Shown here piece after piece: positions 5,848-64,000 of a DNA stretch of 64,000 nucleotides. A program made the position numbers and the translations under genes. The DNA lies in NCBI RefSeq assembly GCF_024139115.2, contig NC_085140.1, positions 433,069,240 through 433,133,239 on the forward strand. The letters are read 5' to 3'. Origin of the DNA: Armigeres subalbatus. Taxonomy: Eukaryota > Arthropoda > Insecta > Diptera > Culicidae. The notes under the pieces are model-generated. The model did not search any database and had not been told where the DNA came from. It saw only the letters and a list, made by a program, of their open reading frames with translations. Within the stretch, counting starts at the first letter, position 1, and the number at the start of each line of letters is the position of its first letter.

Positions 5848-7038
5848 TAGTTGAAATCATGGCAGTTGTGTTGCTCTCGCTCTCGCGATACTCTCAAAGA
5901 AACTTTTTTCCCAAACGTAAACAATGCTTCAAGTGGGGATGGTGCATAACGCACTATTGAAGAAAGTCAATTGTAAAACTTATTCTAGGCAATTCCTTGC
6001 TTTGTACTGTGCATAAACAGTTATAACTGTGCCAACTACCTGATATTATTACACAATTATTTATAAATACAATTATTGGATGCTCGTTTTTAACTCTGCC
6101 TGCATTGAAATTTCATGATTGATACGTGCGTTTTATTCCACTCCACTTTATATCGATTAGCTGTTGTGAATCCTCTCAAAACTCTCACGTGTTTCAACTT
6201 CCCGAGTTGAAAGAATACTTTTTCGGTATCATTTTACAGATCAAAATTCTTTTTGCAAGCAATAATAAATCTAAATTATGATGAAGGTATTTGTCAAGTA
6301 ATTTGACTTGAAATTATTCACATGAAATGACGTTGAAAGTTTATCTAATGAAACATACGATCCATTGTATCTTTCCATTATTAAATGAGAAATGGATTCG
6401 TGCGAAAGATGATAAAACCAAATATTCTTACACTAATTGAATCATTTATTTGCGAAATTATGAAGAAAATGGTGTATCGAACCACGAAAGGTTGATGCTT
6501 GAATCGTGTTTGGAAGCCGTAAGGTAGGCAATTATTTTGGGTATGTTCTGCGAATGAAAGCGATTGTATCGTGATTCGAGAAAAGCATCATGAGGGCCCA
6601 TTTACTACATGACGTTTTAGGTTTTGGGAAGGTTCTTGTCTGAGCGTTAAGGACTTTATAAATTTTAGAACCCTACCATACATGAAGCATTACTAGAGGC
6701 TTGGTGTGGGTTGAGTTTAGCGTTATGTTATGTAATTTGCGAATGAATCTTAACCTGTTTTTACAAAAATTCTTGGCAACCTAATCGCAAGCATCGGATA
6801 TTCTATCTGCAGCTTTCAGTTATTTTCTCCAGTACGGGTTATTGGTAAGAATGTTTTGATTTCAGAGTTTCACCTATACTAACGTAGTGCTACAAATCGA
6901 AAGCGCATGCCACCATTTGGCTACGGGTGTCCCCAGTATTGTCCAAAAAATTTTCGCTATACTAATGGAAATTGTGAAATAAAAATGATAGCTGACATAG
7001 TGTGGTTGTTATCCATTCATCTGATGTGCGAAAGCAGG
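5848..7038. other. Intergenic, nothing recognised
   Basis: AT-rich sequence without a long open frame, repeat array or clear element end. It leads straight into the long inverted repeat that begins near 7039. Confidence 0.4.
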
Positions 7039-7382
7039 TGACGAATTTCGCGCCAACCCTTCCATGGGACTGGCAGCACCATCTCAGAATTGAATGAAAC
7101 TTGGTGGGCTTAAAGATATGGTATTTCTAAGCCACTCTGCATACTTAGTTTTTCAAAAATTGTCAAGAGTAACATTTGATGAGGGCCTAATTTTTTTTAT
7201 TGATTTTTTATAAATCGATGTAACTCTAAAATGACAAAACCTACAAAAAAGTGTTGTATGGCGGACTGTCGTGAAATTCCAAGAAGTTTTTTGGAAAAAT
7301 ATCCATAAAATAAAATACCGATTTCTACACTGAAAAAAATTAGTTTTAAAAATTAAAATCGATATTACAAAAAAACCTCATC
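7039..7382 (+). repeat. Left long terminal inverted repeat
   Basis: It is the inverted partner of 11010-11361. Shared blocks include GGCAGCACCATCTCAGAAT, CACTCTGCATACTTAG, GAGTAACATTTGATGAGGGC and GATATTACAAAAAAACCTCA. Small indels and mismatches show age. Confidence 0.85.
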
Positions 7383-7419
7383 TTAGAAATCGATGAAATT
7401 TTTTCCGCAGATAGGTATT

Positions 7420-9410
7420 CTGCCGTCGGACGCATAAATGTCACATGTTACAAACGAGAAAAATGAGAAAAACGCATTTGAAGTTTCAAAATGCATTCAT
7501 CCGATTATCGCATAATTTCGCTTTTTTATTGACTTTAACGCAATAAACTATAAAAGAATATTCATATTCGTTGGGCCGGACTGAAACATTGCCAAAAATA
7601 ACTATTTTTTCCACGTTTTTCTATCAAACCCCGAATGTGACACTTATGCCGCGAAATTCACTGGTCAGGCGAAAAATGTACGCATATTTGTCACACCGTG
7701 AACTGAGAAATAGTTGTTAATTTGTTTTTACATTTCGCGAGCGACGATTGTATTTCTTTGGTGTGATTTTTTGCTGTCGGTAGAAGTGGAACCGGAAATG
7801 GATTATCCAATACAGACAATCCAGTGGCGCGGGATCGGAAGAGGACTTCCTCGGGTTCGGTATAAAAAAAGAAACAGGTGATCGTTTTCTGTTTGCGGAG
7901 CCGGCAAACGTTCCATTACCGGTCCAAGAGGTTGAACACCCGGTTTTTAGCGGCAGTCCGGGAAAAGGACATGCATTTCATCTTCATCGTCCAAAGGAAT
8001 CACGATTGTCTTACCGAGATGATTTTGACAAAGTGCTACCAGATGAAGCAGTTTTTTTATGTGGATTTGCAAAAAGTTCTCAATTATTTGTAAGTTAAGA
8101 ACTTATTTTCTAAGTCATATGGCTTCCACGGTTGGATTGCTTCAAGAGCATTATTTTCTCGTAAAGGCTGCTGGTCTTTAATGAAAACTTTGAGCCTGTT
8201 TGTCCCTACATACGAGCATTCCCATGGTCTGCGTGCATTTGGTCCGAGTCAGTCGCACAGCCAACGAAATCCTTAGCTGTTTCTTCAAAGTTAATATGAA
8301 GTACGCTGTCCTGAAGACAATTATATTTTGGTTGGATAATTGTTGTTCGCAAAATAAGAACTGGAATTCATTCCATCACATTACCCTACTCATAAACAGT
8401 AATGAAATTCAAGTCGAGCGCATATTGTTGGAGAACTTTGAATCGGGGCATACGTTAAAGGCCGCTGACTTTTTCCATGCGGCGTTTGATTCCAAAATGC
8501 GCCATGAACGTGTCGTCAGTTATGAAAACTTCAAGTCTGTGGTTGGCAATGCAAAGAACAATGTTGACGTACTTCATATGCAATACTGCTAGTTGTTTTT
8601 TAAGAAGGAATTAATGTTGGTTGTAAAGGATTCATCCTCTTTTGATTTGATACAAATGTACGTTGGCAAAATGCTCCTCAAGGAATTGAAGAAGAAAAGA
8701 AAACTTCTTTAATGAAAGTGGTTCAACCTGTTGTTACCGAAGAGGAAAAATCGTTTTTCATTGATCGTCCGACGAAGCAAGAAGGTCCTGATTAATTTTT
8801 GTTCTTGTTTCATACTTTGAATAAATTTTATCGCCATAACATGTCACAATAATTGAGTTTTACAGAAAAAAAAACGGGTTTGCTAAAGGGTTCCCCTTTA
8901 TCACATTTTTATGGTCCTTGAATATTTTAATTATGTCACAGTTTCATTCTCTTATTCACGTTATATTTGGAGAGGTTCTGGACAATATAATACCTCCCCT
9001 CTTCTTTCATGGACAACCGTCCATATACATTCTGAAAGTAGGGAAAGACCTTGCATACTTACCAGCCATCCTTCTAAATTATTTACGTGGATTGTAGATG
9101 ACCCTAAAAGCATGGTATATTTTATGGACGGACCTCAGGAAACATCACGCAGTGCTATGTGTCTTTTTATGTGATTGTTATATCTCTTTTTTTTTGTGTG
9201 ACAAATATGCGTCCATTTATCCCGGTGTGACAAGTATGCGTCCATTTGTTCGAATGTGACAAATTGACTTCAGATTTTTTTCGAGTTTTCTAGAATAAAA
9301 CCTATGTTTTGACAAAATATTTCAAAAACACGTATCAAATTATGACGTTAGACATCAAAACCTCAAAAATGTTAAAATGTAACATGTGACATTTATGCGT
9401 CCAACGGCAG
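7420..9410 (+). mobile_element. 2.0-kb DNA transposon with TATT target duplication
   Basis: Thirty-three-base ends that start CTGCCGTYGGACGCATAAAT are inverted with one mismatch, and TATT lies on both sides (7416-7419 and 9411-9414). Inside, the word GTGACAAATATGCGTCC or close variants recurs near both ends (about 7635, 7672-7692, 9199-9214, 9227-9243), which looks like a set of subterminal protein-binding sites. The remnant protein at 8200-8592 is probably its transposase. A 4-bp duplication is known for Sola and piggyBac-like groups, but the family is not assigned here. It sits inside the larger 7039-11361 element. Confidence 0.8.
7865..8592 (+). pseudogene. Probable transposase remnant of the TATT-flanked element
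   Basis: The best open segment is 8200-8592 (130 codons). It contains FWLDNCCSQNKNW followed about 30 residues later by ENFESGHTLKAADFFHAAF and then VVSYENFKSVV. The pattern of hydrophobic-x-DNC-x-x-QNKNW, then GHT with an acidic residue close behind, is one I associate with RNase-H-like proteins found in many insect mobile elements. The family name is uncertain, and so is the assignment of catalytic acids. Upstream, 7878-8093 is open in another phase and may be an earlier, frameshifted part. Stops and frame changes mean it is not intact. It fills the element whose ends are at 7420 and 9410, so it is most likely that element's own gene. Confidence 0.5.
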
Positions 9411-10429
9411 TATTTTAATTATCTAACTTTTCTGGGAATAATGTTCCTGTGACATATTTAAGGAAAAAAAGTTTTTCTAACAAAAACTTTTTTCAAGTCC
9501 ATATTGAGTGAAAATTTATCAGCGTGCTTTATGCCTACAGCGCCAATTATAGGTTCAGCAGCCTATCATCAACCAACGACACATTTTGGACGAATAAAAA
9601 TTTGTTTGGGAAGCAATTTAGCATAATCATATATATAATAGCCCTGTTTGTCTGTCCGGTGACTAGCCAACCAGACGCAGCATGCGGGGAAATATTCACA
9701 AAAAATAAAATATTTGACACTTCAATTCTTTTTTACTATCTGATGCAGAAAACAAAACCAGTGACAACCATAGACAGCCAGACACAGCATTTGATAAAAA
9801 AAATCACAGACAACAGACGTTGAAAATTTTGATTGAAAAAACAAAACTCATGCCGCGGGCGCTACTGCGTCCACAAATAAACTAGTCTAACATAATTGTG
9901 GACCAACATTTGAAAAGGGTTTATGTTTTATTTGACTTTTTTTTATCGAAGTAACTTAAAAACAATTACAAAAAAATAATTACTTTGAAAACGGGCAATG
10001 TTGCTGAAACGAAACTGAAGTGATATTTAATTGTAATAGTGGAAAAGAAGATGGTGTTTTTCAGCAAAGGCTAACCACTGAACGGTGTAATTTAGAAACC
10101 GTTATAAAGCCTGTAGAGTAGATGAGTTTGTATCGTATTTTTTTGAAAAAAAATGATAAACTTATAACTTATGACATTATTTGCAAACAACAATACACTT
10201 GTACTGTTAGATTTTCCTGAAAATTATTCATTCATCATCCAAAATACTGCTCAAGGTTGGAATAATTCCCAGGCAACAATACATCCATTCGAAGTTTTCT
10301 TCTAAAGATACGGTTAATTAGAAAACGTTAGCTTTATTAATCAGAAGTAATGACCCATGACACAAAAGTTGTTCACTTATTCATTTCAAAATTAATTACT
10401 TTACTTTTTAATTAATTACTTACAAAACT

Positions 10430-10690
10430 TACTTTTGTGTCTGGGTGAGCTGCAGCACATTTTAAAAATAAAAGGAACTTTGCAAGTCTGTGTAATTTAA
10501 ATTCAAAACAAGCCTTAGAAGCAGAATGGCACTTTTTTACAACATCGCACGGAAAAGACCCTTGCGAAGCTATTGGTGGCACTCTCAAACGAATGGCAAA
10601 ACGAGCAACTCTTGCCAAAGATTATGGAAATACTATCAAGACTCCTCGGGAGTTGTACGAATGGGCGAATGGGCACGTTTTCAATCAAAC
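10430..10690 (+). pseudogene. Fossil DDE-type transposase segment
   Basis: Reading + from about 10439, the translation gives AAAHFKNKRNFASLC, then EAEWHFFTTSHGKDPCEAIG directly followed by GTLKRMAKRATL, and then TIKTPRELYEWAN. The order SDGA-HFKNK, then WHFF-TSHGK-PCD-GGT-KR, then TP-ELY-WA is one I recall from transposon-encoded proteins in arthropods and cnidarians. Here the expected acidic residue before the AAAHFKNK block is lost, with a TGA codon at about 10445, and the upstream half is missing. It lies inside the 4.3-kb element with long inverted repeats and is probably what is left of its transposase. Confidence 0.6.
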
Positions 10691-11009
10691 AAAAATATCA
10701 CTATATTACATTTCTGTTATATCACGAATGAGCAATACCGCCATCGGGGATGGCAATGGGTCTGGGGATGATAATGGCTCATCGCTCTCACCGCGAGCAT
10801 GGAGGACGTAGAGCAAAGTCGTTCAAAAAGGTCTCTTATATTTTTGTTTTCTTGTCCTCAGATACATCCATTCTACAAGCATTCTAAGTAGTTGAAACAG
10901 TGACCCATTCTCACCCCCATTTGACCCATTGTCACCCCCGACGACGATACTCAACAAGAGTTTGATGAACTTTTCAAAAAGCAAAAACTATAGTTGGCAC
11001 ACAAAAGAG

Positions 11010-11361
11010 AGATGAGGTTTTTTTGTAATATCGATTTTAATTTTTAAAACTAATTTTTTTCAGTGTAGAAATCGGTATTTTATTTTTTGGATATTTTTCC
11101 AAAAAACTTCTGGGAATTTCACGACAGTCCGCCATTTTTCCGCCAACACTTTTTTGTAGCTCTTGTCATTTTAGAGTTACATCGATTTATAAAAAATCCA
11201 TGAAAAAAAATTAGGCCCTCATCAAATGTTACTCTTGACAATTTTTGAAAAACTAAGTATGCAGAGTGGCTTAGAAATACCATATCTTTATGCCCACCAA
11301 GTTTCATTCGATTCTGAGATGGTGCTGCCAACCGCTGGTCGAGTTGGCGCGAAATTCGTCA
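11010..11361 (-). repeat. Right long terminal inverted repeat
   Basis: Inverse copy of 7039-7382, ending GAAATTCGTCA at the outer edge. The open frames seen on both strands here are a by-product of the repeat and have no independent support. Confidence 0.85.
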
Positions 11362-12330
11362 GGTATGTTCTTTCAGAAAACTCTTTTATGGGGCAAAAAA
11401 AAAAACTCTAACACAGCCAGCCTGCATAAGTCAACGAAACATGGCTGCTTAAAAACCGAGTCAAAGTGATTTTTCACGCAGGATAATTGCTTTTAATAGT
11501 TTAAGAAGTGTATAAATCTAGAGTTATGAAGCAGATATATGTTTGATACACTTTTCTTAAGAAGCAGTGGTTAATATCTCTCTACAAATCGACGTATTAT
11601 CGCTGAAATATTGATTAATTTGCGTGATGAGCCAATGTTACATCCAGGGCCAACATTACCGCCGGTTACCCTATTTATGGCTTGTTGCTGTGAAAAAATG
11701 AAAGACTTTGGTCATTGTTATGAAAAGTTGTTCAAATTTTGCGTGGCCAATAAAAAAAAGTTTAGGAAGGTCAAAACATACAAACCGCCCTGCAGAATAA
11801 ATAAGGTTGTCAATCCAAAAAATAACTCATCACATAGAGGTCATTTGTCTAGAGGATCTATACTAAAAATACGCTAGAACAAAACTACTTTAGTTCTCGA
11901 TGAAACAGGGGGTGATCAAGTCTCCCCGGGGATCAAGTCTACCCACCTGCCCCTACGATTATGAAGTTTTGTACTCGGGTTTCCTGTTACTTGATTGCAC
12001 CGTCACAGGAAAAAATGTGAGTTGTCAAAACATTGAACGACACATTCAATTTACATGGTAAATTGATTGATGCTACATGGTAAAAAATATGCAATTTAAT
12101 GATTTTGTTTCGTGTTTGCAACATGAAGTGCAGTATTCTTTGTTTGTTTGTTTCCAAATGTCAAACACTTACTGCATTGCAATTTTGATGAAACATTGAT
12201 CACAATTCGAACGTTTTTGACACCTTGATGCAACTTTTTCGTGCTTTGATGTTTTTCCAATACCTTTAATGAAGCTGAATAGAAACAAGGTGCTTTTAGG
12301 AAGATGTTGCGTGTGCTACTTGGGCACTTA
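11362..12330. other. Intergenic, with an orphan MITE end at about 11908-11956
   Basis: GATCAAGTCTCCCC and GGGGATCAAGTCTACCC stand side by side near 11913-11943, followed by CACCTGCCCCTA. In reverse this reads TAGGGG, then two copies of GACTTGATCCCC, the same terminal design as the ends at 4367 and 61076. No matching left end was found nearby, so it is a solo or truncated end. An 88-codon open frame at 11611-11877 has no recognisable domain. Confidence 0.45.
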
Positions 12331-13260
12331 CTTACTGGAGGAATACACGGAGAAATTTCGTTGGAATTTATGGACTCTAAAGAAATGTTTGATGGGAATT
12401 CAAAGGAATTGCTTCGAGAACTTCAAATCATGCAGGAATCTTCAGAGGAATTATCTGAGGGATTTCCGGATGAACCCCCTGAGGAACTTCCGAAAGAATT
12501 GAAAAAGAATGAATTCTTGGAGGAACATTGCGAAGAATTCCTGGAGAAACTTTCCGAAGAATTCCTGGAGAAACTTTACGAAGAATTCCTGGAGGAACTT
12601 CCCAGTTAATTGTTGTGGAATCTTCGAATTTTTGGAAAAACTTCCGGATGAATTTCTGGAGCAACTCCGAAAGGACACCATGGAGGAACTTTCGGAGGAA
12701 TTTTTTGAGGGACTGCCGGAGGAATTCTTGGAGAAACTTCAGAAGAAATCCTTGGTGGAACTTCCAAAATAATTCCAGAAGTTCAGAATGAGCTGTTAGA
12801 GATGATTGTGGAGGAATTCCTGGAGAAGCTTTCGGAGGAATTTATGATGGAACTCTTGGAGGAATTCCTGGAGGAACTTCCGAAGAAATTCTTGAATAAA
12901 CTTCCTAAGGAAGTCCTTTAGGATTTTTTTTTTGAACTTTTATAGGAATTCCTCTAGAAGCTTCACGAAGAATTCCTGCAGGAATTTCCAAACTAATTTC
13001 TGGTGGAACTCCTGGAGGAACGTACAGACGATCTGGAGGAACTTTCGAGGGAATTCCTGGTGGAAGTTCCGGAGGAAATTCTGGCGGATCTTCCGGAGGA
13101 ATTCCTGTAGGAACTTTCAGAAGAATTCCTGGAGAAATTTGCTGAGGAATTCCTGAAGAAATTTCCGGAGGAATTCCTGGAGGAACTTCGGAGGAATTGC
13201 TGAAGGAACTTCCGGAGGAATTGCTGATAGAACTTCCGGAGGAATTGCTGGAGTTTTTTC
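12330..13260 (+). repeat. 24-bp minisatellite (GAAGAATTCCTGGAGAAACTTTCC type)
   Basis: A degenerate tandem array with a 24-bp unit close to GAGGAATTCCTGGAGGAACT plus TCCG. Because the unit is a multiple of three, it stays open in several frames on both strands and reads as repeated E-F-L-E-E-L-P or N-S-W-R-N. I therefore treat those frames as artefacts. Arrays with the same unit in the opposite orientation occur at 20245-21480 and 63200-64000. Confidence 0.85.
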
Positions 13261-13261
13261 T

Positions 13262-13440
13262 GGGCCCTTCTTAGTCTAGCGGTAAGACGCGCGGCAACAA
13301 AAAGGACCATGCTGAAGGTGGTTGTGTTCGTTTCCCGATTTCGGTTTGCAAATCGTCTCTACTTTCCTGGGCATAAAAGTATCATTGTGTTAGCCTCATG
13401 ATATACGATTGCATAAATTGTAACTTTCAATAATACAGGT
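13262..13440 (+). mobile_element. Degenerate tRNA-derived SINE (Feilai type)
   Basis: The start TTCTTAGTCTAGCGGTAAGA resembles a tRNA box A. It is followed by a decayed box B, TTCGTTTCCCGATTTCGG, and then the body CTGGGCATAAAAGTATCAT-GTGTTAGCCTCATGATATACG. The same body occurs inverted at 58040-58310. The tail is truncated. It lies directly after the minisatellite. Confidence 0.75.
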
Positions 13441-20244: not shown

Positions 20245-21480
20245 AATTATCCGGAAGTTCTTCAACGAGTTGGTTGAGAACTACACCAACAAATTCCTCT
20301 GGACATTCTTTCAGGAATTTCTCCGAAAGCTCTCCAGAAGCTCTTTCATTAGATCCTCCAGAAGTTATTCCTGGAATTTCTCCGGAAATTCCTCCAGGAT
20401 TTTCTCCGGAAGTTCCTCCAGCAGTTTCTCCGGAAGTTCCCTCAGAATTTCCTCTAGAAATTATTCCGGAAATTCCTCTAGGAATTCCTCCTGAACTCCT
20501 GAACTTTCTCCAAGAGTTTCTCCAGAAGTTCCTCCACGAGTTCATTCGAAAGTTTCTCCAGGAGTTCCCCCAGAAGTTGCTGCAGGAGTTCTTACAGGAG
20601 TTCCTCCGGGAGTTCCTCTAGAAATTCCTCCAGGATTTACTCCGGAATTTCTCCCAGGGGATCCTCCAGGAGTTCCTCCGGAAGTTCCTCCGTTTCTCCA
20701 GGACTTCTTCCGGAAGATCCTCCAGAAATTTCTCTAGGAGGACTTCCGGAAGTTCCTCCGGAAGCTCCTTTAGGAGTTACATCAGTGGTTCCTCGGGTAG
20801 TTTCTCCAGGAGTTCCTCTAGAAGTTCCCCCGGAAGTTCCTCCAAGAGTTCATCCGGAAGTTCCTCCAGGAATTCATCTGAAAGTTCCTCCAGGGTTCAT
20901 CTGGAAGCTCCTCCAGGAGTTTCCCCGGAAGCTCCTCCAGGAGTAACCCCGGAAATTCTTCCAGGAGTTCCCCCAGAAGTTGCTACAGGAGTCCTTACAG
21001 GAGCTCCTCCAGGAGATCCTCCGGAAGTTCCAGGAGATCCTCCGGAAGTTCCTCCAGGAGATCCTCCGGAAGTTCCTTCAGGAGATCCTCCGAAAGTTCT
21101 TCCAGGAGATCCTCCGGAAGTTACTCCAGGAGATCCTACGGAAGTTTCTCCGGGAGTTCCTCCAGTAGTGCCTCCAGAAAAAACCTCTGGAAGTTCCTCC
21201 AGGAGTTACTCCGGAAGTTCCTTCAGGGGTTCCTCCGAAAGTTCCTCCAAGAATTCTTCCGGAAGCTCATCTAGGAGTTCCTCCAGGAAATTCTTTAGAA
21301 GTGCCTCCTGGAATTTTTTCGGTAATTTCTTCAAAAAAATTTCGGGAATTCTTCCGAAAGTTCCTATTCATATGGATGTTTGCTCAGGAAATCCCCAAAA
21401 AGTCCTATAACTTCTTAAATAATTACTCATAGAATTTCTTTCTGGAGTTCCTCCAAAATCTTCTTCAAGTTAATTTCAAA
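20245..21480 (-). repeat. 24-bp minisatellite, most regular part
   Basis: The unit GGAGATCCTCCGGAAGTTCC plus TCCA repeats in tandem, very regularly at 20990-21160. Variants continue in increasingly degenerate form to about 22300. It is the inverse orientation of the array at 12330-13260. Open frames on both strands, such as repeated EILRKFLQ, come from the unit length of 24. Confidence 0.85.
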
Positions 21481-22865: not shown

Positions 22866-24487
22866 GGGAGCGGGCCATTTGGCATAAAGTCATTTGGCAT
22901 AAGGTCATTAGGCAGAAAGGCCATTTGGCATAACGGTCATTTGGCATAATTGTGACCAGCATCAAAAGTGAGGGTCTTTTGGCATAACAGACATTTGGCA
23001 TAATTTTTCTTTGCGTTCGCTAAATGGTGAATAAGTGGTGCGGGAGACACCCGGAATAGTAAATACACCCGTCGATAACAATATCAAAAAGACATTATCC
23101 TCTCGTGGTAAGAATGCTTTTGCAATGCAATGCTAAAGTAGGCGCATGCCCAGATTAGAGCAATGGTGGATGTAATCCCTTTTTAAAAGTAGGCGTGTGA
23201 CCGGATAATGGCAATGGAGGATATGATACCTTCTTTAAAAGTAGGCGCTTTCCCGGATTATCACAATGGTGGATGTGATTTCTTCTTTAAAAGTAGGCGC
23301 ATTCCCGGATTAAGGCCATGGTGGATGCGATCACTTCCTTAAAAGTAGGCACTTGCATGGATTATGGCAATGGAGGATGTGATCCCTTCTTTAAAAGTAG
23401 GTGCTTGCCCGGATTATGACAATTGTGGATGTGATTTCTTCTTTGGAAAAGGCGCTTGCCCGGATTGAGGCAATGGTGGATGTGATCCCTTCTTTAAAAG
23501 TAGGCGCTTGCCCGTATTATGCCAATGGTGGATGTGATTTCTTCTTTAAAAGAAGGCGCTTGCCCGAATTGAGGCAATGGTGGATGTGATCCCTTCTTTA
23601 AAAATAGGCGCTAGGAGGATTTGATTCATACTTTAAAAGTAGGTGCTTGCCTGGATTGAAGCAATGGTGGATGTAATCCCTTCTTTAAAAGTAGGCGCTT
23701 GCCCGGATTATAACAATTGTGGATGTGATTCCTTCTTTAAAAGAAGGAGCTTGCCTGGATTGAAGCAATGGTGGATGTAATCCCTTCTTTAAAAGTAGGT
23801 GTGTGGCCCGAATTGTGGCAATGTGATACCTTCTTTAAAAGTAGGCCTTGCCCGGATTATGGCAATGGTGAATGTGACACCACCCGGCGTTTGCCGGGAA
23901 TAAATCAATGGTAGATGCATTCTCTTCTCCGAGTAGCACAATTCAGATTGATTTGGTTGCAGTAACTCATATGTGACTTGATTGGTTCAAGTAACTCGTC
24001 TACGACAAGTGTATTGCTTGAGTTTTTAAAGTTATGCGCTTGCCCGGATTAAGGCAATGGTGGATTTGATCCGGTTTTAAGGCGCATGCCCGGATTGAAG
24101 CAATGGTGGATGTAATCCCTACTTTAAAAGTAGGCATGTGGCCGGAATAAGTCAATGTTGGATGTGATCCCTCCCTCGGAAGTAATTCTGCCGTTTTGTT
24201 ATTTCGCTCTTCCGGAAAATGTCTACCATCAGTCTAAATTTATCAGAAAACAGCCTTGACCTACTTTATCAACGCTAAACAAAACATGAAATATCCCTTT
24301 CGCTTTCACAGTTTGAAATTATGCCAAATGTCCGTTATGCCAAATGACCCACTCTTTTCTTGCAGTTCAAAATTATGCCAAATGTCCGTTATGCCAAATG
24401 ACCATTATGCCAAATGGCCTTTATGCCAAATGACCTTATGCCAAATGGCGTTATGCCAAATGACTTTATGCCAAATGACCCAGACCC
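22866..24487. mobile_element. Mutator-like element with tandem-repeat ends
   Basis: The identical 9-bp duplication GTATTTCGG lies at 22857-22865 and 24488-24496. The ends start GGGAGCGGGCCATTTGG and, inverted, GGGTCTGGGTCATTTGG. They consist of about 6 to 9 tandem copies of a 15-bp unit around CATTTGGCATAA. A 9-bp duplication is typical of Mutator-like elements. There is no transposase, and the interior is a 52-bp minisatellite. It is nested in the 4.4-kb hAT-type element. Confidence 0.8.
23130..24180 (+). repeat. ~52-bp minisatellite, about 20 copies
   Basis: The unit is close to TTCTTTAAAAGTAGGCGCTT, then GCCCGGATTATGGCAATGGT and GGATGTGATCCC. AAAAGTAGGCG recurs about every 52 bp from 23184, with a disturbed stretch around 23880-24010. 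It is confined between the inverted ends of the Mutator-like element. Confidence 0.85.
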
Positions 24488-37400: not shown

Positions 37401-40400
37401 ATGCGTATGGTGCAGTTATGACAAGAAATGAAAATGACCAGTTTCGTGACAAGCCACATGTTTACAGTGGTGAAAATGGATCACGAGAGAACAACACTAG
37501 AGAACGGGTTGTACATGTCTAAGAACAAAATAAGCCTAAAAATACGGTTCTTCTTTGAGCGCTATTGTTATCCGACCTATAGGCTTTTCCTTGATGACCC
37601 AATATTACCCACTAGACCTATTGTCACGCCCAATGACGATATGGTATGTAATCAGTCTATGATCAAGTTATACCCCTCGGCGCCTTATTTTCCAATAAGT
37701 ACTTGAATGATATTATGCGAATGATAAGTCTAATAAAACAGATGTATTTCGTGATTCGATGGCAGGTGTCGATTTTACCCCAACTGATAACATAATAATG
37801 ATGAGATACATGTGGATGTTAATAATTAGAAAAGTTAACTATTTTTCCACAACATACAGAAAATGATGTTCAATTATGGATCAGAAAAGAATTAAATACT
37901 GAAAATCAACAAATTGTTGTCGAAAAAGCTTATACACCGAAGCCAAAATTTTACATAACTCACCTCCTCAATGGTGATCAATGCTAATTGTCTGTTTATT
38001 ATGACTCTTACACATCTCCGCCAGTTACAAAATGACCAGAAATACAAAAAATCAAACGTTTATTCAAAGTGTGTTGAAATTCTGTCCGATAATCACTTGA
38101 AATCAGAGATTTGAAGTGGTGTCGGTTTTACCCGCAGTGTCGGTTTTACCCACAATTCCCCTAATGGATTGCGTCATGGCTAAATTGATTAATGACTTAA
38201 AGTGTGCATGTAAACAGCGTATTTGTTAAAAGAAAAATAGAAATATTATTCAAATCGAATGAGTTATTAGCAAACAAAAACAATAGTGTCCAACTAGGAA
38301 AGTTTCTCCGTCGAATGAAACAAGTTGCACTCGAATCGGTCAAGTCCTTCTATATGAAACGTGTTTAACAATAAAAAATTCCTGAGGCTACACACACACA
38401 CACACACACAGTCAGACATGTGCTCAGTTTTTCGAGCTGAGTCGATTGGTATATAACACTATGGGTCTCCGAGCCTTCTATCAAAATTTGGCTTTTGGAG
38501 TGAAATTATAGCCTTCTGGTTCAACTTTGTTGTACGAGAAAGGCAAAAATCACTAAAATAATGAATTAAAAACTGACCATAGTTCAGAAATCCGAATAAA
38601 GTACATTTTGAATTAATAATTATTTTCGAGCGTCTTAGGGGAAAATGCCGGAAAAAACCGTGTACATTCTGAAATTTTCATAGTTTTACTCTTATACACT
38701 GCTGCAGAAAAGCTTTTTACGTTACCTAATAAAAATTTTAATATCTGCATTACATCTCCTGAGATGTCACCAGACATCGTGAGATAGTTTCGATATATTC
38801 TCTAGGTCATTGAATCTGTACTTGAGTTCGGGATATGCTATCAACAGTTTTAGCAGTAGCTATTCTCGTTACACAACTACCATAGACTAGGGATCCAATA
38901 ATGAGAGATATGCGAAAGCGGCCATTGTGAGCCAATAGAGCATTGAGAACTGTCAAAATGTGAGCCAAATGAACGTTGTTATTGTTGCAGATTGAAAGGT
39001 GGTTGTTATGAAAGATTTTAAGAAAAGTTGTATCGAATAAACAATTCTCGCTTAACTTTTCAAAAGGTCCTAAGTAACATTTTTTTCATGAATTAATTTG
39101 AATAGCGCAATTAACAGAACAACATGAAAGCTATTGATTGCAGTATTCAAATTAATTCATAAAAAAAATGTTACTTAGGACCTTTTGAAAAGTTAAGCGA
39201 GAATTTGTTTTACTTTCGCAAGTAGAAGTAATCTAGTTTATGTGTCGTGTTTCACTTATTTGTATTACACTTTTATTTTAGTGACAATGCTTATTTAAAC
39301 ACTGTAAGTGGATAGACAAACATATTCCAAACATACTTTCGCCTCTAATTCTATCATGAACATGTACGTCTAAGTTTGGAAGATGATATTAGCATTTCCA
39401 TATCATTGTAAATCGTTTAACTTCACGTAGAATAAACACACACAAAATCATTAATTTAATATTCCAAATTGTTATCAAATGCAAAGTCATATACAAGCTT
39501 CAACATTTTACGCTGCGGCAAGTGCTGGAAGCGTTTGCTAATAAAAGTAACAGCGTTGCTAAATCCCCTGGAAAAGTATTTGCATATCTCTCATTATAGG
39601 ATCCCTACTATAGACCAGGTGTTCGCTAAACGTCACATTGCAGAAATGCCACGAATGCAACGTGCCCAGACATTTTCTATTCATTGACTACAAAGCCGCA
39701 CATGAAACAATCGTTCGAGATCAGCTATGGCAACTAATGCACAAATACGAATTCCCGGATAAACTGATACGGTTGATCAAGGCAATGCATTATAGTATTT
39801 CAGGCGGTCATAAATCGAAAATGTCACGTCTTCCAAATAATTTTTAAATATTTTCTTTTAACATTTGAAGTCTATGTTCCTAATTTGGCCAGTTTCTCGC
39901 ATAAATCCAAAAATAAAGGAACTTTCGCGGGATTTTATTAGTAGTAACGGGAGATATATCCCTTATGCTTCTTCGCTGTGGAAACTGATCTATAGTTTGT
40001 GGAAAATATGCATTTTTCAGGGTTGGCCAAATTAGGCACTATGGTGGTTAAAACTGGTACAATTACTCTACTTTTTAACACCATTTTTGGAAAATGGCGT
40101 ATACGTCACTTTGCCAGATTACGGCAGTTAAAATAAAATTGCTAAAAATTAGTGAGATTAAAAGCTACAGAAAAAGTTTATACAGCAAAGTTGATTGGAA
40201 TAAGCTGCGCTACGATTTTGTAGAACATGTAAATTACAATATTCCGCAAAATAAAGAAAATAATTTTTTTTATAAAATGTGATTTTTTGATAGCTCTATA
40301 ACAAGGGCCCGAGTATCAAGAACAACTGTGTACAACATTTTTTTTTTCTTAAAAGTATCGTTTTTGCCAAAAATGCATCTTTTCTCGATAAACTTGCAAT

Positions 40401-49400: not shown

Positions 49401-52400
49401 GGATAATCTACGATGAATTACATCCCCGCAACTTTGACGTCACATGACAGAAAGTGTGGAAAAGTGGGCATCGAGCGGCTACCTTCTACCAAAGCTGTGG
49501 CACTACCAACGAACTGGGAACCGGCTTCATAGTGCTGGGTAAGATGCGCCATTGTGTGATTAGGTGGCAGCCAATCAACGTAAGGATGTGCAAGCTGAGG
49601 ATTAAAGGCCGTTTCTTCAACTATAGCATCATCAACGTGCACTGCCCACACGAAGGGAGACCCGACGACGAGAAAGAAGCGTTCTACGCACAGCTGGAGC
49701 AGACATACCATGGATGCCCACTGCGGTATGTCAAAATCGTCATCGGTGACATGAACGCATAGGTAGGCAGGGAGGAAATGTATAGACCGGTTATCAGACC
49801 GGATAGTCTGCACACCGTATCGAATGACAACGGCAAACGATGCATAAACTTCACAGCCTCCAGCGGAATGGTAGTCCGAAGCACCTTCTTTTCCCGCAAA
49901 AATATCCACAAGGCCACATGGAGATCACCTAGCCAAGAAACGGAAAACCAAATCAACCACGTTCTATTCGACGGTAAATTCTTCTCCGACATCACGAACG
50001 TCCGCACTTACCGCAGTGCGAATATTGAATCCGACCACTACCTCGTTGCAGTATGCCTGCGCTCAAAACTCTCGACGGTGTACAATACGCGTCGAAGTCG
50101 AACGCCGCGGCTTAACATTGGGCGGCTAAGACGGTAGACTAGCCCAAGAATACGCGCAGCAGCTGGAAGTGGCACTCCCAACGGAACTAGGCGCAGCGTC
50201 TCTTGAAGATGGCTGCAGAGATATTCGATCTGCCATTGGTAGCACCGCAACCGCTGCACTTGGCACGATGCCCCCGGATCAGAATAACGTCTGCTATGAC
50301 GGCGAATGTGAGCACTGAGCAGTTAGTAGAAGAGAAGAATGCAGCATGGGCGAGATTGCTGCAACACCGCACGAGGGCGAACGAGGCACGATACAAACGG
50401 GCGCGGAACAGACAAAACTCGATTTTCCGGAGGAAAAAGCGCTAGCAGGAAAATCGAGACCGTGAGGAGACGGAGGAACTGTACCGCGCTAATAACACAC
50501 GAAAGTTCTATGAGAAGTTAAACCGTTCACGTAAGGGCCACGTGCCACAGCCCGATGTGTGTAAGGACATAAACGGGAACCTTCTTACGAACGAGCGTGA
50601 GGTGATCCAAAGGTGGCGGCAGCACTACGAAGAGCACCTGAATGGCGATGTGGCAGACGAAGATGGTGGTATGGTGATGGACCTGGGGGAACGCTAGCCG
50701 GGCATAATTTTACCGGCTCCGGATCTCCAAGAAATCCAGGAGTAGATTGGCCGGTTGAAAACAACAAAGCCCCTGGGGCTGACCTAATACTAGGAGAGCA
50801 ATTTAAACACGGTGGTGAGGCACTGGGTAGAGCGCTGCACTGGGTCATTACCAAGATTTGGGAGGATAAAGTTTTGCCGCAGGAGTGGATGCAAGGTGTC
50901 GTGTGTCCCATTTACAAAAAGGGCGATAAGTTGGATTGTAGCAACTACACCGCGCAATCACATTGCTGAACGCCGCCTACAAGGTACTTTCCCAAATTTT
51001 ATGCCGTCGACTAACACCAATTGCAAGAGAGTTCGTGGGGCAGTACCAGGCGGGATCTATGGGTGAACGCTCTACCACAGACCAGGTGTTCGCCATACGT
51101 CAGGTATCGGGACCAGCTATGGCAGCTAATGCACGAAAACGGATTTCCGGATAAACTGATACGGTTGATCAAGGCGACGATGGATCGGGTGATGTGCGTA
51201 GTTCGAGTTTCAGGGGCATTCTCGAGTCCCTTCGAAACGCGTAGAGGGTTACGGCAAGGTGATGGTCTTTCGTGTCTGCTATTCAACATCGCTTTGGACG
51301 GAGTAATACGAAGGGCAGGGATTGACACGAGTGGTACGATTTTCACGAAGTCCGTCCAGTTATTTGGTTTCGCCGACGACATTGATATCATGGCACGTAA
51401 CTTTGAGAGGATGGAGGAAGCCTATATCAGACTGAAAAGCGAAGCTAAACGGATTGGACTAGTCATCAACACGTCGAAGACGAAGTACATGATAGGAAGA
51501 GGCTCAAGAGAGGTCAATGTAAGCCACCCACCACGAGTTTCTATCGGTGGTGACGAAATCGAGGTGGTTGAAGAATTCGTGTACTTGGGCTCACTGGTGA
51601 CCGCAGCACACATGTTCCATATGGGTTACTGTGACTCTTATGTGACCAGATTCAGTCACAATCAAGTTGCTGCAACCATTTTTGTCTGACTTGTGATGCT
51701 CGGGCCAGCAGAGAAATTCGGAGGCGCATAGTGGCTGGAAATCGTACGTACTTTGGACTCGGCAAGACGCTACGATCGAATAGAGTTCGCCGCCGTACCA
51801 AACTGACTATTTACAAAACGCTCATTAGACCGTTAGTTCTCTACGGACACGAGACCTGGACGATGCTCGTGGAGGACCAACGCGCACTGGGAGTTTTTGA
51901 AAGGAAAGTGTTGCGTACCATCTATGGTGGGGTGTAGATGGCGGACGGTACGTGGAGGAGGCGAATGATCCACGAGTTGCATCAGCTGTTGGGAGAACCA
52001 TCCATCGTTCACACCGCGAAAATCGGAAGACTGCGGTGGGCCGGGCACGTAGCCAGAATGTCGGACAGTAATCCGGTGAAAATGGTTCTCGACAACGATC
52101 CGACGGTAACAAGAAGGCGAGGTGCACAGCGGGCAAGGTGGATCGACGATGGAGGACGATTTGCGGACCCTCCGCAGGCTGCGTGGATGGCGAAGTGCAG
52201 CCATGGACCGAACTGAATGGAGAAGTCTTTTATGTGCAGCACAGGCCACTCCGGCCTTAGTCTGATAATAAATAAATAGATGTGACAAAATTGAGCGCAC
52301 AGCGAATTTTTTTCTATCAAATTTCTTATTATAAACACGATTAATGTATTTTAATACTGTTTTTCCATGATTATATTTATAACATCCGCTACTTAAACAT

Positions 52401-55400
52401 TCAGTGTTTTGAAATTAAACCATGTTTTGGTCAAAATGGCGAACACGTGAGAGATAAGAATATTGATATTTAACTATTCAATGCTGCTGGGCAAAATAGA
52501 TGCTTTAAGATATGGATTTCACCGGCATCGTGTATTATATATGATAGATAATCGAAATCGAGCGAGACATACGATTAATTTGGGAAAACTCAGTCGGTAA
52601 ATGATGAAAGTAGATGTAAACATTCAGAGAAAACGACAAATGTTAGGAATGACATAATTCAAATTTAGTACCTATGTCTTTAACTTAAATTTGTTTTAAA
52701 GCTCGATTATTGTCTCAGGTCTATCATTAAGAGCAATATTATTAAACTCATATAAACTTAAAAGTTAATTGAAGACGGCCTCACAGTTTAGGTCGAAATT
52801 CGTATCTGTAAAGATAACAAAACGAATTGGAATTAAATAGAAAGTACTAAAGTCGACTTAGACATTCCACTGTAAGAGCTTAAATAATTTTTCTTTTAAA
52901 AGTTCCAGTTTGAAATTTGTTAAATAACCCTGCTGGCAGAGCAATAATACTTTTAACATTCTTGATAGATGTTTTATTGGAATTGTTGGGTAGCACCAGC
53001 CATTCTTATAACCAGGTATTTTTTAAATTTCCGAACTGTCACTAAGTTTTGTAAGCTAAATAAAATAAAATTCGGAAAATGAGACAGAGCGAACGAAAGT
53101 TGTTTGTGCACATAAGTCATTTGGTCGAACAAACCATTAGGCTGAAACCCAATATCGTTCGGAACTGGACATTTGACCGAAAAAGTTGTTGGCCAAATGA
53201 CCTAGGCCGAAAATGCCTTTGTTTGGCTGAAATGGTCGTTTACCGGGAAGGATCATTTGGCCGAAGATATTTTTTGAAAATGTTGTTTGGTCGAAATAGT
53301 CGTTTGTCAGAAAGGATCATTTGGCTTTTTGGTCGGGGTCTCCAGTAGCCTTGCGAGCAAAGGCGTAGGATTGCCTATCCGGAGATGGCGAGTTCGATTC
53401 TCGGTCCGGTCTAGGATGTTTTCGGGTTGGAAACATTCTCGACTCCCTGCGCATAGTGTATCTATTGTACTTGCCACACAAGATACATACTCATGCAATG
53501 GTGGGCATAGAAAATTCTACGATCACTTTGTCAATCGAAGTCAAAATTCGGATACGTCTCGTTGAATACGATCATCATTGATCGAATTGGTTCGTTCAGG
53601 TCGTAGTCATGGTGTTGTCGAGGCAAACGGAAGAAGGCACTAGAACGGAACGTATACGCAGGCACATTGATGTCCATTAGCGCCAAAATATTGGGGGCAT
53701 CCGCTTCTCCAACCAGAACTTTGGCAACAAAAGTCGCTTTCACGTTTCTCCTAAGCTGTCTCAGAGTTTCGATGCCAATCAGTTGACATATGGCTGCATA
53801 CGGTGGAAGGTGCGATGGGTCATTCCAGGGCAGAAAACGTAGGGCGAATCTTATAAATTTTCGTTGCACCGATTCAAATCTTTCGATCATAGTTGCTTGA
53901 TACGGATCCCATACCAACACAGATAAAAATATGTTGTGATTTTAAATGTATTTTCATGCACATATTTGGAGCATGTAAATGAACGTAACATTCAATCGAT
54001 CCCACTATTCTTTTAAATCGAAATAAATTTAAACGGTGCTTGCTTGTAAAATTCAATCAAATCTAATTGAATATCGAATGTTAATCCGTTTGATGGGGTG
54101 AGCTGCAATTTTACACGTCGTTGAATTTTCAAAATTATTTGCTGTGAACGAAGCTGTTTTCAGGATAGGACGGACCAACGCAACGTATAATGACTTCAAC
54201 GTATATGGGTCACGAAATTCTTTAGTGATTTTAGACACAAACCCAAGTTGACGACGAGCTCGCTTGATTACTTCTTCTTGGTGTTCTTTGAACGTCAGCT
54301 CGGCATCCAGAACAACTCCAAGATCTCGAACAGAAAAAGCACGGTTTAGCGGTTCATCACCGATTACGTAGTTGTGTATGATCGGGCACTTCTTGCGATG
54401 GAAACTTATGATGGAACACTTTGGCACGCTCAAAGCCATGTGATTGGCTCGACTCCAGAAGAGAAGCCGATCTAAGAGCTCCTGCAGCTTGATGCAATCC
54501 GACAGTTGATCGATTACAACATATATTTTCATATCGTCAGCATATAAAATGCAGTAGCCTTCACCAATGTACATGACTACATCGTTGAAGAAGAGGGAGA
54601 AAAGCAACGGCCCAAGACTGCTTCCCTGTGGTACACCAGACCAGTTTGTGAACCAATCCGAAACAAATGAGCCTATTTTTACAGCCAGTTTTCTATCACA
54701 CAGTAAGGATCTGAACCAACAAACAAGCCGAGAAGAAAAGCCCAATTTTTCGAGTTTTGCTAAAAGAATCGTGTGGCTTACACGATCAAAAGCAGCCTTC
54801 AGATCGGTGTAAACGGAATCGATCTGCTTTCCTCGACCAATATTCCGCAAGCAAAGCGAAGAGAATTCAACTAGATTGGTGGTAACGCTTCGCCCGGGAA
54901 AAAAACATGTTGTTTTGTGCTGATGTAGTGCCTCACGCGGGAGAATGTGTAGCTCGAAACGATGATTTCCATTAGCTTCGAGCACGCGCATAAGGATGTA
55001 ATTCCTCGATAATGTTTTATGTCATCTTTAGCATCTTTTTTGTGCACCGGAAACATGAATGATTTTTTCCATAGAGTTGGAAAACAAGATTGTCGCAACG
55101 ATAAATTGAGAATGTGTTGAAGAGGCGCTATCAAATTGGCCGAGCATTTCTTAAGAATACTGGCAGGCCCCCATCCGGACCTGGTCGGAATGACATTTTC
55201 AATTTAGACAGAGCAATCAACAGGTCTTCAGCAGTGATAGTGAATGTATCTGCGTCAATAATCTCACTCGGGACGAAACACAGTGCTGCCGTTGATTCAC
55301 TGGTAGCTAGTGGCCTGTAGAAAACCGAAGCGAAGAATTCAGCAAACAGCGAGCATTTTTCAGCAAATGTCCTTGCAGCACGATGATCCAGATGCATAGC

Positions 55401-63199: not shown

Positions 63200-64000
63200 C
63201 CTAGGCAAGTTTCCCACAAGTCATTCCAGGAGAAATTCCTCCGAAAGTTCCTCCGCAAGCTCTTCCAGGAATTCCTTCATAAAATCCTCCTAGAATTCCT
63301 CCGGAAGTACCTCAAGATATTATTCTGAATCTTTCTCCAGAAATTCCTTCGGAAGTTTCTCCAGGAGATTTTCCACAAAATCCTCCAGAAATTCCTCCGA
63401 GAGTTTATCCAGCAGTATTTCCGTAAATTCTTTTAGAATTTCCTCTAGGAATTACTCTGGAAGTGCCTCCAGGAATTCCTCAAAATTTCGTCCGAAAGTT
63501 TCTACAGGATATCCTTCAGAAATTCCCACATAAATTATAAATAGTTTATTTAAAAATTTCTACGGAAATTCCTTCAAGAATACCTCGGGAAGTTTCTCCA
63601 AGAATTCCTCTGGAAGTTCCTTCAGGAATTTTCCCAAAAATTACTCAAAAAATTTCCTTTTGAAGTTTCTATAAGGAGTTCTCTAGAAATTTCTACAGGA
63701 ATTCCTTTCGGAAGTTATTATCATTCGGAAAATCCTCCGAAAAATCCACATAAAATTCCTCAGGAAGTTCTTTCAGAAACTCCAGAATTACTCCCAGGAA
63801 ATTCTCCGGAAGATCCTCTAAAAATTCCTCCGGGAGTCCCTCCAGGAATTCCCCTGTAACTGCCTCCAAGAATTCCCTCAGAAATTCCTCAAACATTTCC
63901 TTCGGAAGTTTCTGATAATTCCTCTTGAAATTTCTCCTCCAAGAATAATTCTGAAAATTCCACAAAAATGTTCTTCTGAAGTTTCTATAGGGACTCCTCC
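63200..64000 (-). repeat. Degenerate 24-bp minisatellite, runs off the window
   Basis: CCTCCGGAAGTTCCTCCAGG-type words at 24-bp spacing, more degenerate than the arrays at 12330 and 20245, in the orientation of the latter. The 90-codon frame reading EEFLREFLEAVTGEFLEGLP on the minus strand is repeat-derived. Confidence 0.8.

What the first reader, a model, noticed from the sequence alone, without database searches (positions are those of the whole stretch)
7039..11361. A transposon inside a transposon, each with its own type of transposase
The outer element has about 345-bp inverted ends and a fossil WHFFTTSHGK/GGTLKR protein. The inner one has 33-bp ends, a TATT duplication and a DNC-QNKNW / GHT protein. 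Neither signature fits the usual named insect superfamilies in my recollection. This is the best candidate in the window for poorly described DNA transposon groups.
Basis: partly seen in the sequence, partly recalled or inferred. Interest (0 to 1): 0.75.

Follow-up and report, generated by a model that had tools for sequence, protein, structure and literature searches.

The report
Three nested fossil DNA transposons
Three dead cut-and-paste transposons sit one inside another here; the two large ones carry remains of two different transposases whose relatives have the same three-aspartate kind of active site, so the finding is real but is mostly a decayed example of a known kind of mobile DNA.

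Summary
All three duplications are 4 bp. The inner protein is a fossil of a large family carrying Pfam DUF7869. The outer one has 15 relatives at E<=0.01, none with a credible Pfam family. Intact relatives of both model as RNase-H-like cores with three conserved aspartates at the expected places; the outer window copy has lost the second. Both genes are broken and truncated. DDD transposase, 4-bp TSD and TIRs of very different length are the published description of the Sola superfamily; I file both as probably Sola-like, but no Sola reference sequence was held, so membership by homology is untested. The two families are not demonstrably homologous. The host genome could not be searched. Verdict: new members of a known kind, low to moderate interest.

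The parts
7036..7039 (.). Outer element target site duplication, left copy AGGT
7040..7383 (+). Outer element, left long terminal inverted repeat (344 bp)
7040..11360 (+). Outer element, whole: 4321 bp with its inserts; 2114 bp by my arithmetic once the inner element, the MITE and one TSD copy of each are subtracted
   Evidence: boundaries
7416..7419 (.). Inner element target site duplication, left copy TATT
7420..9410 (+). Inner element, whole (1991 bp)
7420..7452 (+). Inner element, left 33-bp TIR
   Evidence: 32/33 with the right end
7678..7695 (+). Inner subterminal copy of the TIR motif GGACGCATAWWTGTCACA (1 mismatch)
7964..8257 (+). Inner transposase fossil, N-terminal segment found; the first aspartate (VDLQK) at 8061-8075 is read in another frame than the tblastn row
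   Evidence: tblastn with P0021, P0080, P0019, P0129; frames
8076..8113 (+). About 38 extra bases directly after DLQK, where a relative has an insert and two others diverge: probable decayed intron (inference)
8194..8589 (+). Inner transposase fossil, DUF7869 segment with second (DNC..QNKNW) and third (GHT...AAD) aspartates
   Evidence: Pfam PF25273 E 4e-7; tblastn
8667..8780 (+). Inner transposase fossil, C-terminal segment
   Evidence: tblastn with P0080 416-453, E 2.4e-7
9197..9214 (-). Inner subterminal motif copy (0 mismatches)
9226..9243 (-). Inner subterminal motif copy (1 mismatch)
9378..9410 (-). Inner element, right 33-bp TIR
9411..9414 (.). Inner element target site duplication, right copy TATT
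10038..10738 (+). Outer transposase fossil, equivalent to P0003 residues 260-507, in several frames
   Evidence: tblastn E 8.4e-56 for 260-503, plus 484-507 in another frame
10735..10738 (.). Third element (MITE) target site duplication, left copy ATAC
10739..10946 (.). Third element: 208-bp MITE inserted in the 3' part of the outer transposase fossil; 24-bp ends, 20/24
10947..10950 (.). Third element target site duplication, right copy ATAC
10969..11007 (+). Outer transposase fossil, collinear C-terminal bit TFQKAKTIVGTQK
   Evidence: tblastn with P0005 297-309, 61% identity but E 4.9; collinear once the MITE is skipped
11010..11360 (-). Outer element, right long terminal inverted repeat (351 bp)
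11361..11364 (.). Outer element target site duplication, right copy AGGT

Best explanation
Three nested, dead cut-and-paste DNA transposons. The outer element came from a family whose transposase has an RNase-H-like core with three conserved aspartates; it inserted at AGGT. A second element, from a different transposase family (the DUF7869 family, also an RNase-H-like DDD core), inserted into it at TATT, and a 208-bp MITE inserted into the 3' part of the outer transposase gene at ATAC. Inferred mechanism: transposase made by intact copies elsewhere bound the inverted ends (for the inner element also the repeated subterminal copies of the TIR motif), cut the element out with two-metal DDD chemistry, and joined the 3' ends to target DNA with a 4-bp stagger that became the 4-bp duplications. 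Shown here: ends, duplications, nesting, homology of the proteins, predicted fold and conserved aspartates in relatives. Inferred: catalysis, end binding, cut-and-paste. Both large elements most likely belong to Sola-type transposons (my estimate 0.6 for each, lower than for the rest of the statement). Both are now non-autonomous: genes shifted in frame and truncated.
Confidence: 0.82

Rival explanations
1. One or both protein families form their own superfamily beside Sola, not yet named, with a DDD core and 4-bp TSDs reached independently.
For: No Pfam hit above cut-off in three outer relatives scanned and no precomputed domain in 15; no significant profile similarity between the two families; no paper found that holds DUF7869 or QNKN with transposase and DNA transposon, and the 14 papers holding one of four motif strings are by title and abstract not about transposons. 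The library holds only open-licence papers.
Against: The Sola features that could be tested are met, and Sola itself is described as a superfamily of several distinct subgroups (PMC4455052, passage).
Confidence: 0.25
2. The outer element is a long-TIR element of MULE or foldback type whose ends are unrelated to the protein fossil, which was captured.
For: Very long TIRs; MULE TIRs can exceed 300 bp (PMC10741241, passage). Coding homology stops 2 bp before the right arm, with about 34 C-terminal residues of P0003 missing.
Against: MULE TSDs are 7-12 bp by the same source, here 4 bp. An internal deletion plus duplication of one end explains the truncation without capture (inference).
Confidence: 0.1
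3. Ordinary members of a well-known insect superfamily (Tc1/mariner, piggyBac, hAT, P) that look odd only because they are decayed.
For: The folds resemble Mos1 among others.
Against: TSDs are AGGT, TATT and ATAC, not TA (mariner) or TTAA (piggyBac), and 4 bp, not 8 (hAT and P, recalled). Pfam gives DUF7869 for the inner protein and no hit above cut-off to a named transposase domain for the pieces and relatives scanned.
Confidence: 0.03

Closest known systems
Sola superfamily (Sola1, Sola2, Sola3)
   Same: DDD transposase, 4-bp TSDs, TIRs of very different lengths (PMC10741241), several distinct subgroups in one superfamily (PMC4455052). The original paper, Bao et al. 2009, is not held and is recalled only.
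   Different: No sequence comparison with a Sola reference was possible. AGGT of the outer element is not AT-rich, unlike the Sola2 cases in PMC3627910.
DUF7869 proteins (Pfam PF25273)
   Same: The inner fossil matches the Pfam model above its cut-off (30.2 bits, cut-off 26); relatives occur in mosquitoes, Culicoides, beetles and a leafhopper.
   Different: The family is a domain of unknown function; none of the names shown in the 120 listed rows says transposase. The window copy is broken and lacks the N-terminal part.
Mariner transposase Mos1 and retroviral integrases (fold only)
   Same: RNase-H-like core with the acidic residues at the same places of the fold.
   Different: No relevant sequence match in the PDB; mariner TSD is TA.

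Membership tests
Sola (inner element) | 4-bp target site duplication | tested here: met
   TATT both sides
Sola (inner element) | DDD catalytic triad | tested here: met
   D313/D389/D433 conserved in relatives, positions in the model; catalysis itself not tested
Sola (inner element) | TIR 11-1124 bp | tested here: met
   33 bp; range from PMC10741241
Sola (inner element) | Sequence similarity to Sola1/2/3 transposases | not testable with these tools
   No Sola reference held; Bao et al. 2009 not held
Sola (outer element) | 4-bp target site duplication | tested here: met
   AGGT both sides
Sola (outer element) | DDD catalytic triad | tested here: met
   In relatives: D330 14/14, D412 15/15, D453 15/16; model position at lower confidence. 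The window copy lacks the second and has E for the third
Sola (outer element) | TIR 11-1124 bp | tested here: met
   344/351 bp
Sola (outer element) | Sequence similarity to Sola1/2/3 transposases | not testable with these tools
   No Sola reference held
DUF7869 (inner protein) | Score above Pfam cut-off | tested here: met
   30.2 bits against 26
DUF7869 (outer protein) | Score above Pfam cut-off or profile similarity | tested here: not met
   No PF25273 hit for the window piece or for P0003, P0007, P0014; hhalign not significant
MULE (outer element) | TSD 7-12 bp | tested here: not met
   4 bp; range from PMC10741241
Tc1/mariner | TA target site duplication | tested here: not met
   AGGT, TATT, ATAC; TA rule from PMC10741241
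Kolobok / piggyBac | TTAA target site duplication | tested here: not met
   AGGT, TATT, ATAC; TTAA rule from PMC9587614

The most novel reading that the evidence does not exclude
The outer protein family (CDFSENY / SDGAA..YKN / EWHFFATSHGKGPCDAIGGT) is an unnamed transposase lineage without a Pfam model, and together with the DUF7869 family it defines a wider group of short-spaced DDD transposases that share D-x6-K-N at the second aspartate and H-x5-D at the third (both spacings identical in the two families), of which Sola would be a part.
Probability: 0.25. Interest if true: 0.5.

Novelty: new member of a known kind. Interest (0 to 1): 0.33.

Why it matters
It gives DUF7869 a concrete anatomy: in this copy the domain lies in a transposon with 33-bp ends, a 4-bp TSD and repeated subterminal sites, and its fold and conserved aspartates mark it as a probable DDD transposase. 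Proteins annotated only as DUF7869 in insect genomes could then be recognised as transposon genes. The outer family had no credible Pfam hit in the members scanned and would probably be missed by domain-based annotation. Nothing here changes the general picture of cut-and-paste transposition.

Tried and rejected
Other copies in the host: the genome search on the own genome was asked twelve times with the same query and never answered, so copy number, intact copies and full-length ends are unknown. Other copies in the window: none of the outer or inner element at E<=0.01. IMG/VR: 42 and 55 pattern hits with the two families, none confirmed by tblastn; the outer 17-base tip gave 3 contigs, where the match to the left arm stops after 18-20 bases, so I take it as chance; the inner tip gave none. 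Prokaryote contigs: 37 pattern hits with the outer family, none confirmed. PDB by sequence: nothing for the outer; one irrelevant hit, E 0.61, for the inner. PHROGs: only weak hits, best E 0.007, none taken as meaningful. Weak Pfam hits discarded, all below cut-off: DuoxA E 0.1 for one window frame; three for P0007 (E 0.0036-0.055), two for P0021 and one for P0022 (E 0.12-0.16).

Homology of the two families to each other: the alignments put the second and third aspartates together, but the score (23.0; 15 and 119 sequences kept of 16 and 121) was reached by 1 of 60 column shuffles and is close to reversed profiles, and global alignment failed, so it is not claimed. Foldseek alone gave no E<=0.001 for either model. 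Papers: DUF7869, 0 papers; QNKN with transposase and DNA transposon, 0 papers; four motif strings, 14 papers, by title and abstract none about transposons; broader searches on Sola and superfamilies gave 77, 12, 5 and 7 papers, of which I saw listings, and passages of ten; none of the passages shows a Sola protein sequence. Retroviral and mariner rows are fold resemblances only.

Full report
The observation. Between 7040 and 11360 lies an element with long inverted ends: 344 bp on the left and 351 bp on the right, 329 identities, 14 mismatches, 9 gap positions (93.5% over 353 columns). With these boundaries both flanks read AGGT; moving the boundary by one to four bases gives at most two matching bases. 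Inside, at 7420-9410, lies a second element with 33-bp ends (32/33) flanked by TATT on both sides. A third element, not reported, lies at 10739-10946: 208 bp, 24-bp ends with 20 of 24 identical, flanked by ATAC. All three duplications are 4 bp long.

The third element. Each of its ends carries two copies of GGGGRTGANAATGGGTCA (10746, 10764 on one strand; 10901, 10922 on the other). The whole window holds 7 matches with up to 3 mismatches against 0.24 expected; the other 3 lie at 37466-37631, where a much decayed relative of the MITE may lie. No duplication could be defined there, and the direct alignment to the first copy (140 identities, 57 mismatches) was slightly worse than the one to the reverse strand (147, 50), so this second copy is tentative. 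The MITE sits inside the outer transposase fossil: homology runs to the tyrosine codon at 10736-10738 and resumes downstream; with the MITE skipped, one frame reads from HFCYITNEQY to TFQKAKTIVGTQK, with two stops between.

The inner protein. The piece 8194-8589 matches Pfam DUF7869 (30.2 bits, cut-off 26, E 4e-7). A read-through query found two proteins at E<=0.01: P0001 (71% identity over 39% of the query) and P0002, a 590-residue Culicoides sonorensis protein CSON014464 (35% over 57%). P0002 in turn found 294 proteins at E<=1e-5, itself included (120 listed), among them mosquito, beetle and leafhopper proteins whose names, where shown, are only uncharacterized, unnamed, hypothetical or DUF7869. 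In the rows seen, tblastn places three collinear pieces in the inner element: 7964-8257 and 8254-8580 (P0021, E 1.2e-40) and 8667-8780 (P0080, E 2.4e-7). The first 339 residues of P0021 and roughly 70-80 residues before the C-terminal piece have no counterpart, and the frame changes several times. The stop codons just after DLQK lie in about 38 extra bases where P0080 has a 20-residue insert and P0018 and P0126 diverge, so they are probably a decayed intron rather than damage; this is inference.

The outer protein. The frame around WHFFTTSHGK found 15 proteins at E<=0.01 among 66 candidates, the best-scoring 68% identical. tblastn with P0003 covers residues 260-503 at 10038-10715 (E 8.4e-56) and 484-507 to 10738 in another frame. 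A P0007 segment at 10198-10338 carries the first aspartate motif (DFPENYSF) in a further frame. The C-terminal bit at 10969-11007 is weak alone (E 4.9) but collinear. P0003 residues 1-259 have no counterpart in 9415-10037 in the rows seen. About 34 C-terminal residues are also missing, and coding homology ends two bases before the right arm at 11010. A simple reading is that the right arm is a secondary copy of the left end that replaced the 3' end of the gene, which would also explain the TIR length; this is inference from one copy. Of three outer relatives scanned against Pfam, two gave no family and P0007 gave three hits, all below cut-off and discarded.

Sites at the ends. The inner TIR contains GGACGCATAAATGTCACA. 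Five matches with up to 2 mismatches occur in the whole window, against 0.02 expected, and all five lie in the inner element: 7428 and 7678 on the + strand at the left, 9385, 9226 and 9197 on the - strand at the right, so all read inward. Such an array is what one expects of transposase binding sites; binding was not tested.

Relation of the two families. Both have D-x6-K-N at the second aspartate and H-x5-D at the third. Profile comparison aligns these aspartates with each other, but the score (23.0) was reached by 1 of 60 column shuffles (23.6), reversed profiles gave 20.4 and 21.5, and global mode gave nothing (with fewer sequences gave P 0.068). Common ancestry beyond the RNase-H fold is therefore possible, not shown.

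Classification. A review describes Sola elements as encoding a DDD transposase, with 4-bp TSDs, TIRs from 11 to 1124 bp and mostly 2-9 kb (PMC10741241, passages seen). Repbase treats Sola1, Sola2 and Sola3 as distinct subgroups of one superfamily (PMC4455052, passage), and Sola2 cases have AT-rich 4-bp TSDs (PMC3627910, passage). Both elements meet the features that could be tested; the inner copy (1991 bp) and the outer without inserts (2114 bp, my arithmetic) are internally shortened, so length says little. The decisive feature, sequence similarity to Sola transposases, could not be tested: no reference sequence is held and the original paper is not in the library. I put Sola membership at about 0.6 for each. 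Tc1/mariner (TA), piggyBac and Kolobok (TTAA) and MULE (7-12 bp) fail on the duplication (passages).

How it worked. Inference from family knowledge: a transposase assembly binds the ends, the three aspartates hold two metal ions, the element is cut out and its 3' ends are joined to target DNA four bases apart, and repair leaves the 4-bp duplications. Order of events: outer first, then inner and MITE, whose mutual order is unknown. None of the three can make its own transposase now.

Limits. The closest named relative of the inner protein is from a biting midge and several of the next are from mosquitoes, but a transposon can move between hosts. The host genome was never searchable (12 calls), so copy number, activity and full-length structure are open.

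Noticed in passing
10739-10946: Third nested element, a 208-bp MITE with 24-bp ends, ATAC duplication and two motif copies per end.
   Followed up: yes
37466-37631: Three weaker matches to the MITE end motif, perhaps an old degenerate second copy; no duplication defined.
   Followed up: partly
8076-8113: About 38 bases after the DLQK codons, at a position where a relative carries an insert and two others diverge: probable intron fossil in the transposase gene.
   Followed up: partly
11008-11010: Coding homology of the outer transposase stops two bases before the right long inverted repeat, as if that arm had replaced the gene's 3' end.
   Followed up: partly
9630-9880: Stretch inside the outer element beginning with a short TA run and AATAGCCCTGTTTGTCTGTCCGG, without a transposase match in the rows seen; could be a remnant of a further insertion.
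   Followed up: no
12425-13263, 20294-21365, 63225-64000: Related minisatellite arrays, 24-bp unit where Tandem Repeats Finder reports one, in both orientations, at three places of the window.
   Followed up: no
23135-24175: Tandem array with a 52-bp unit.
   Followed up: no
51015-51689 and 54053-55021: Two reverse transcriptase fragments (Pfam RVT_1) on opposite strands, probably non-LTR retrotransposons (the type is my guess).
   Followed up: no
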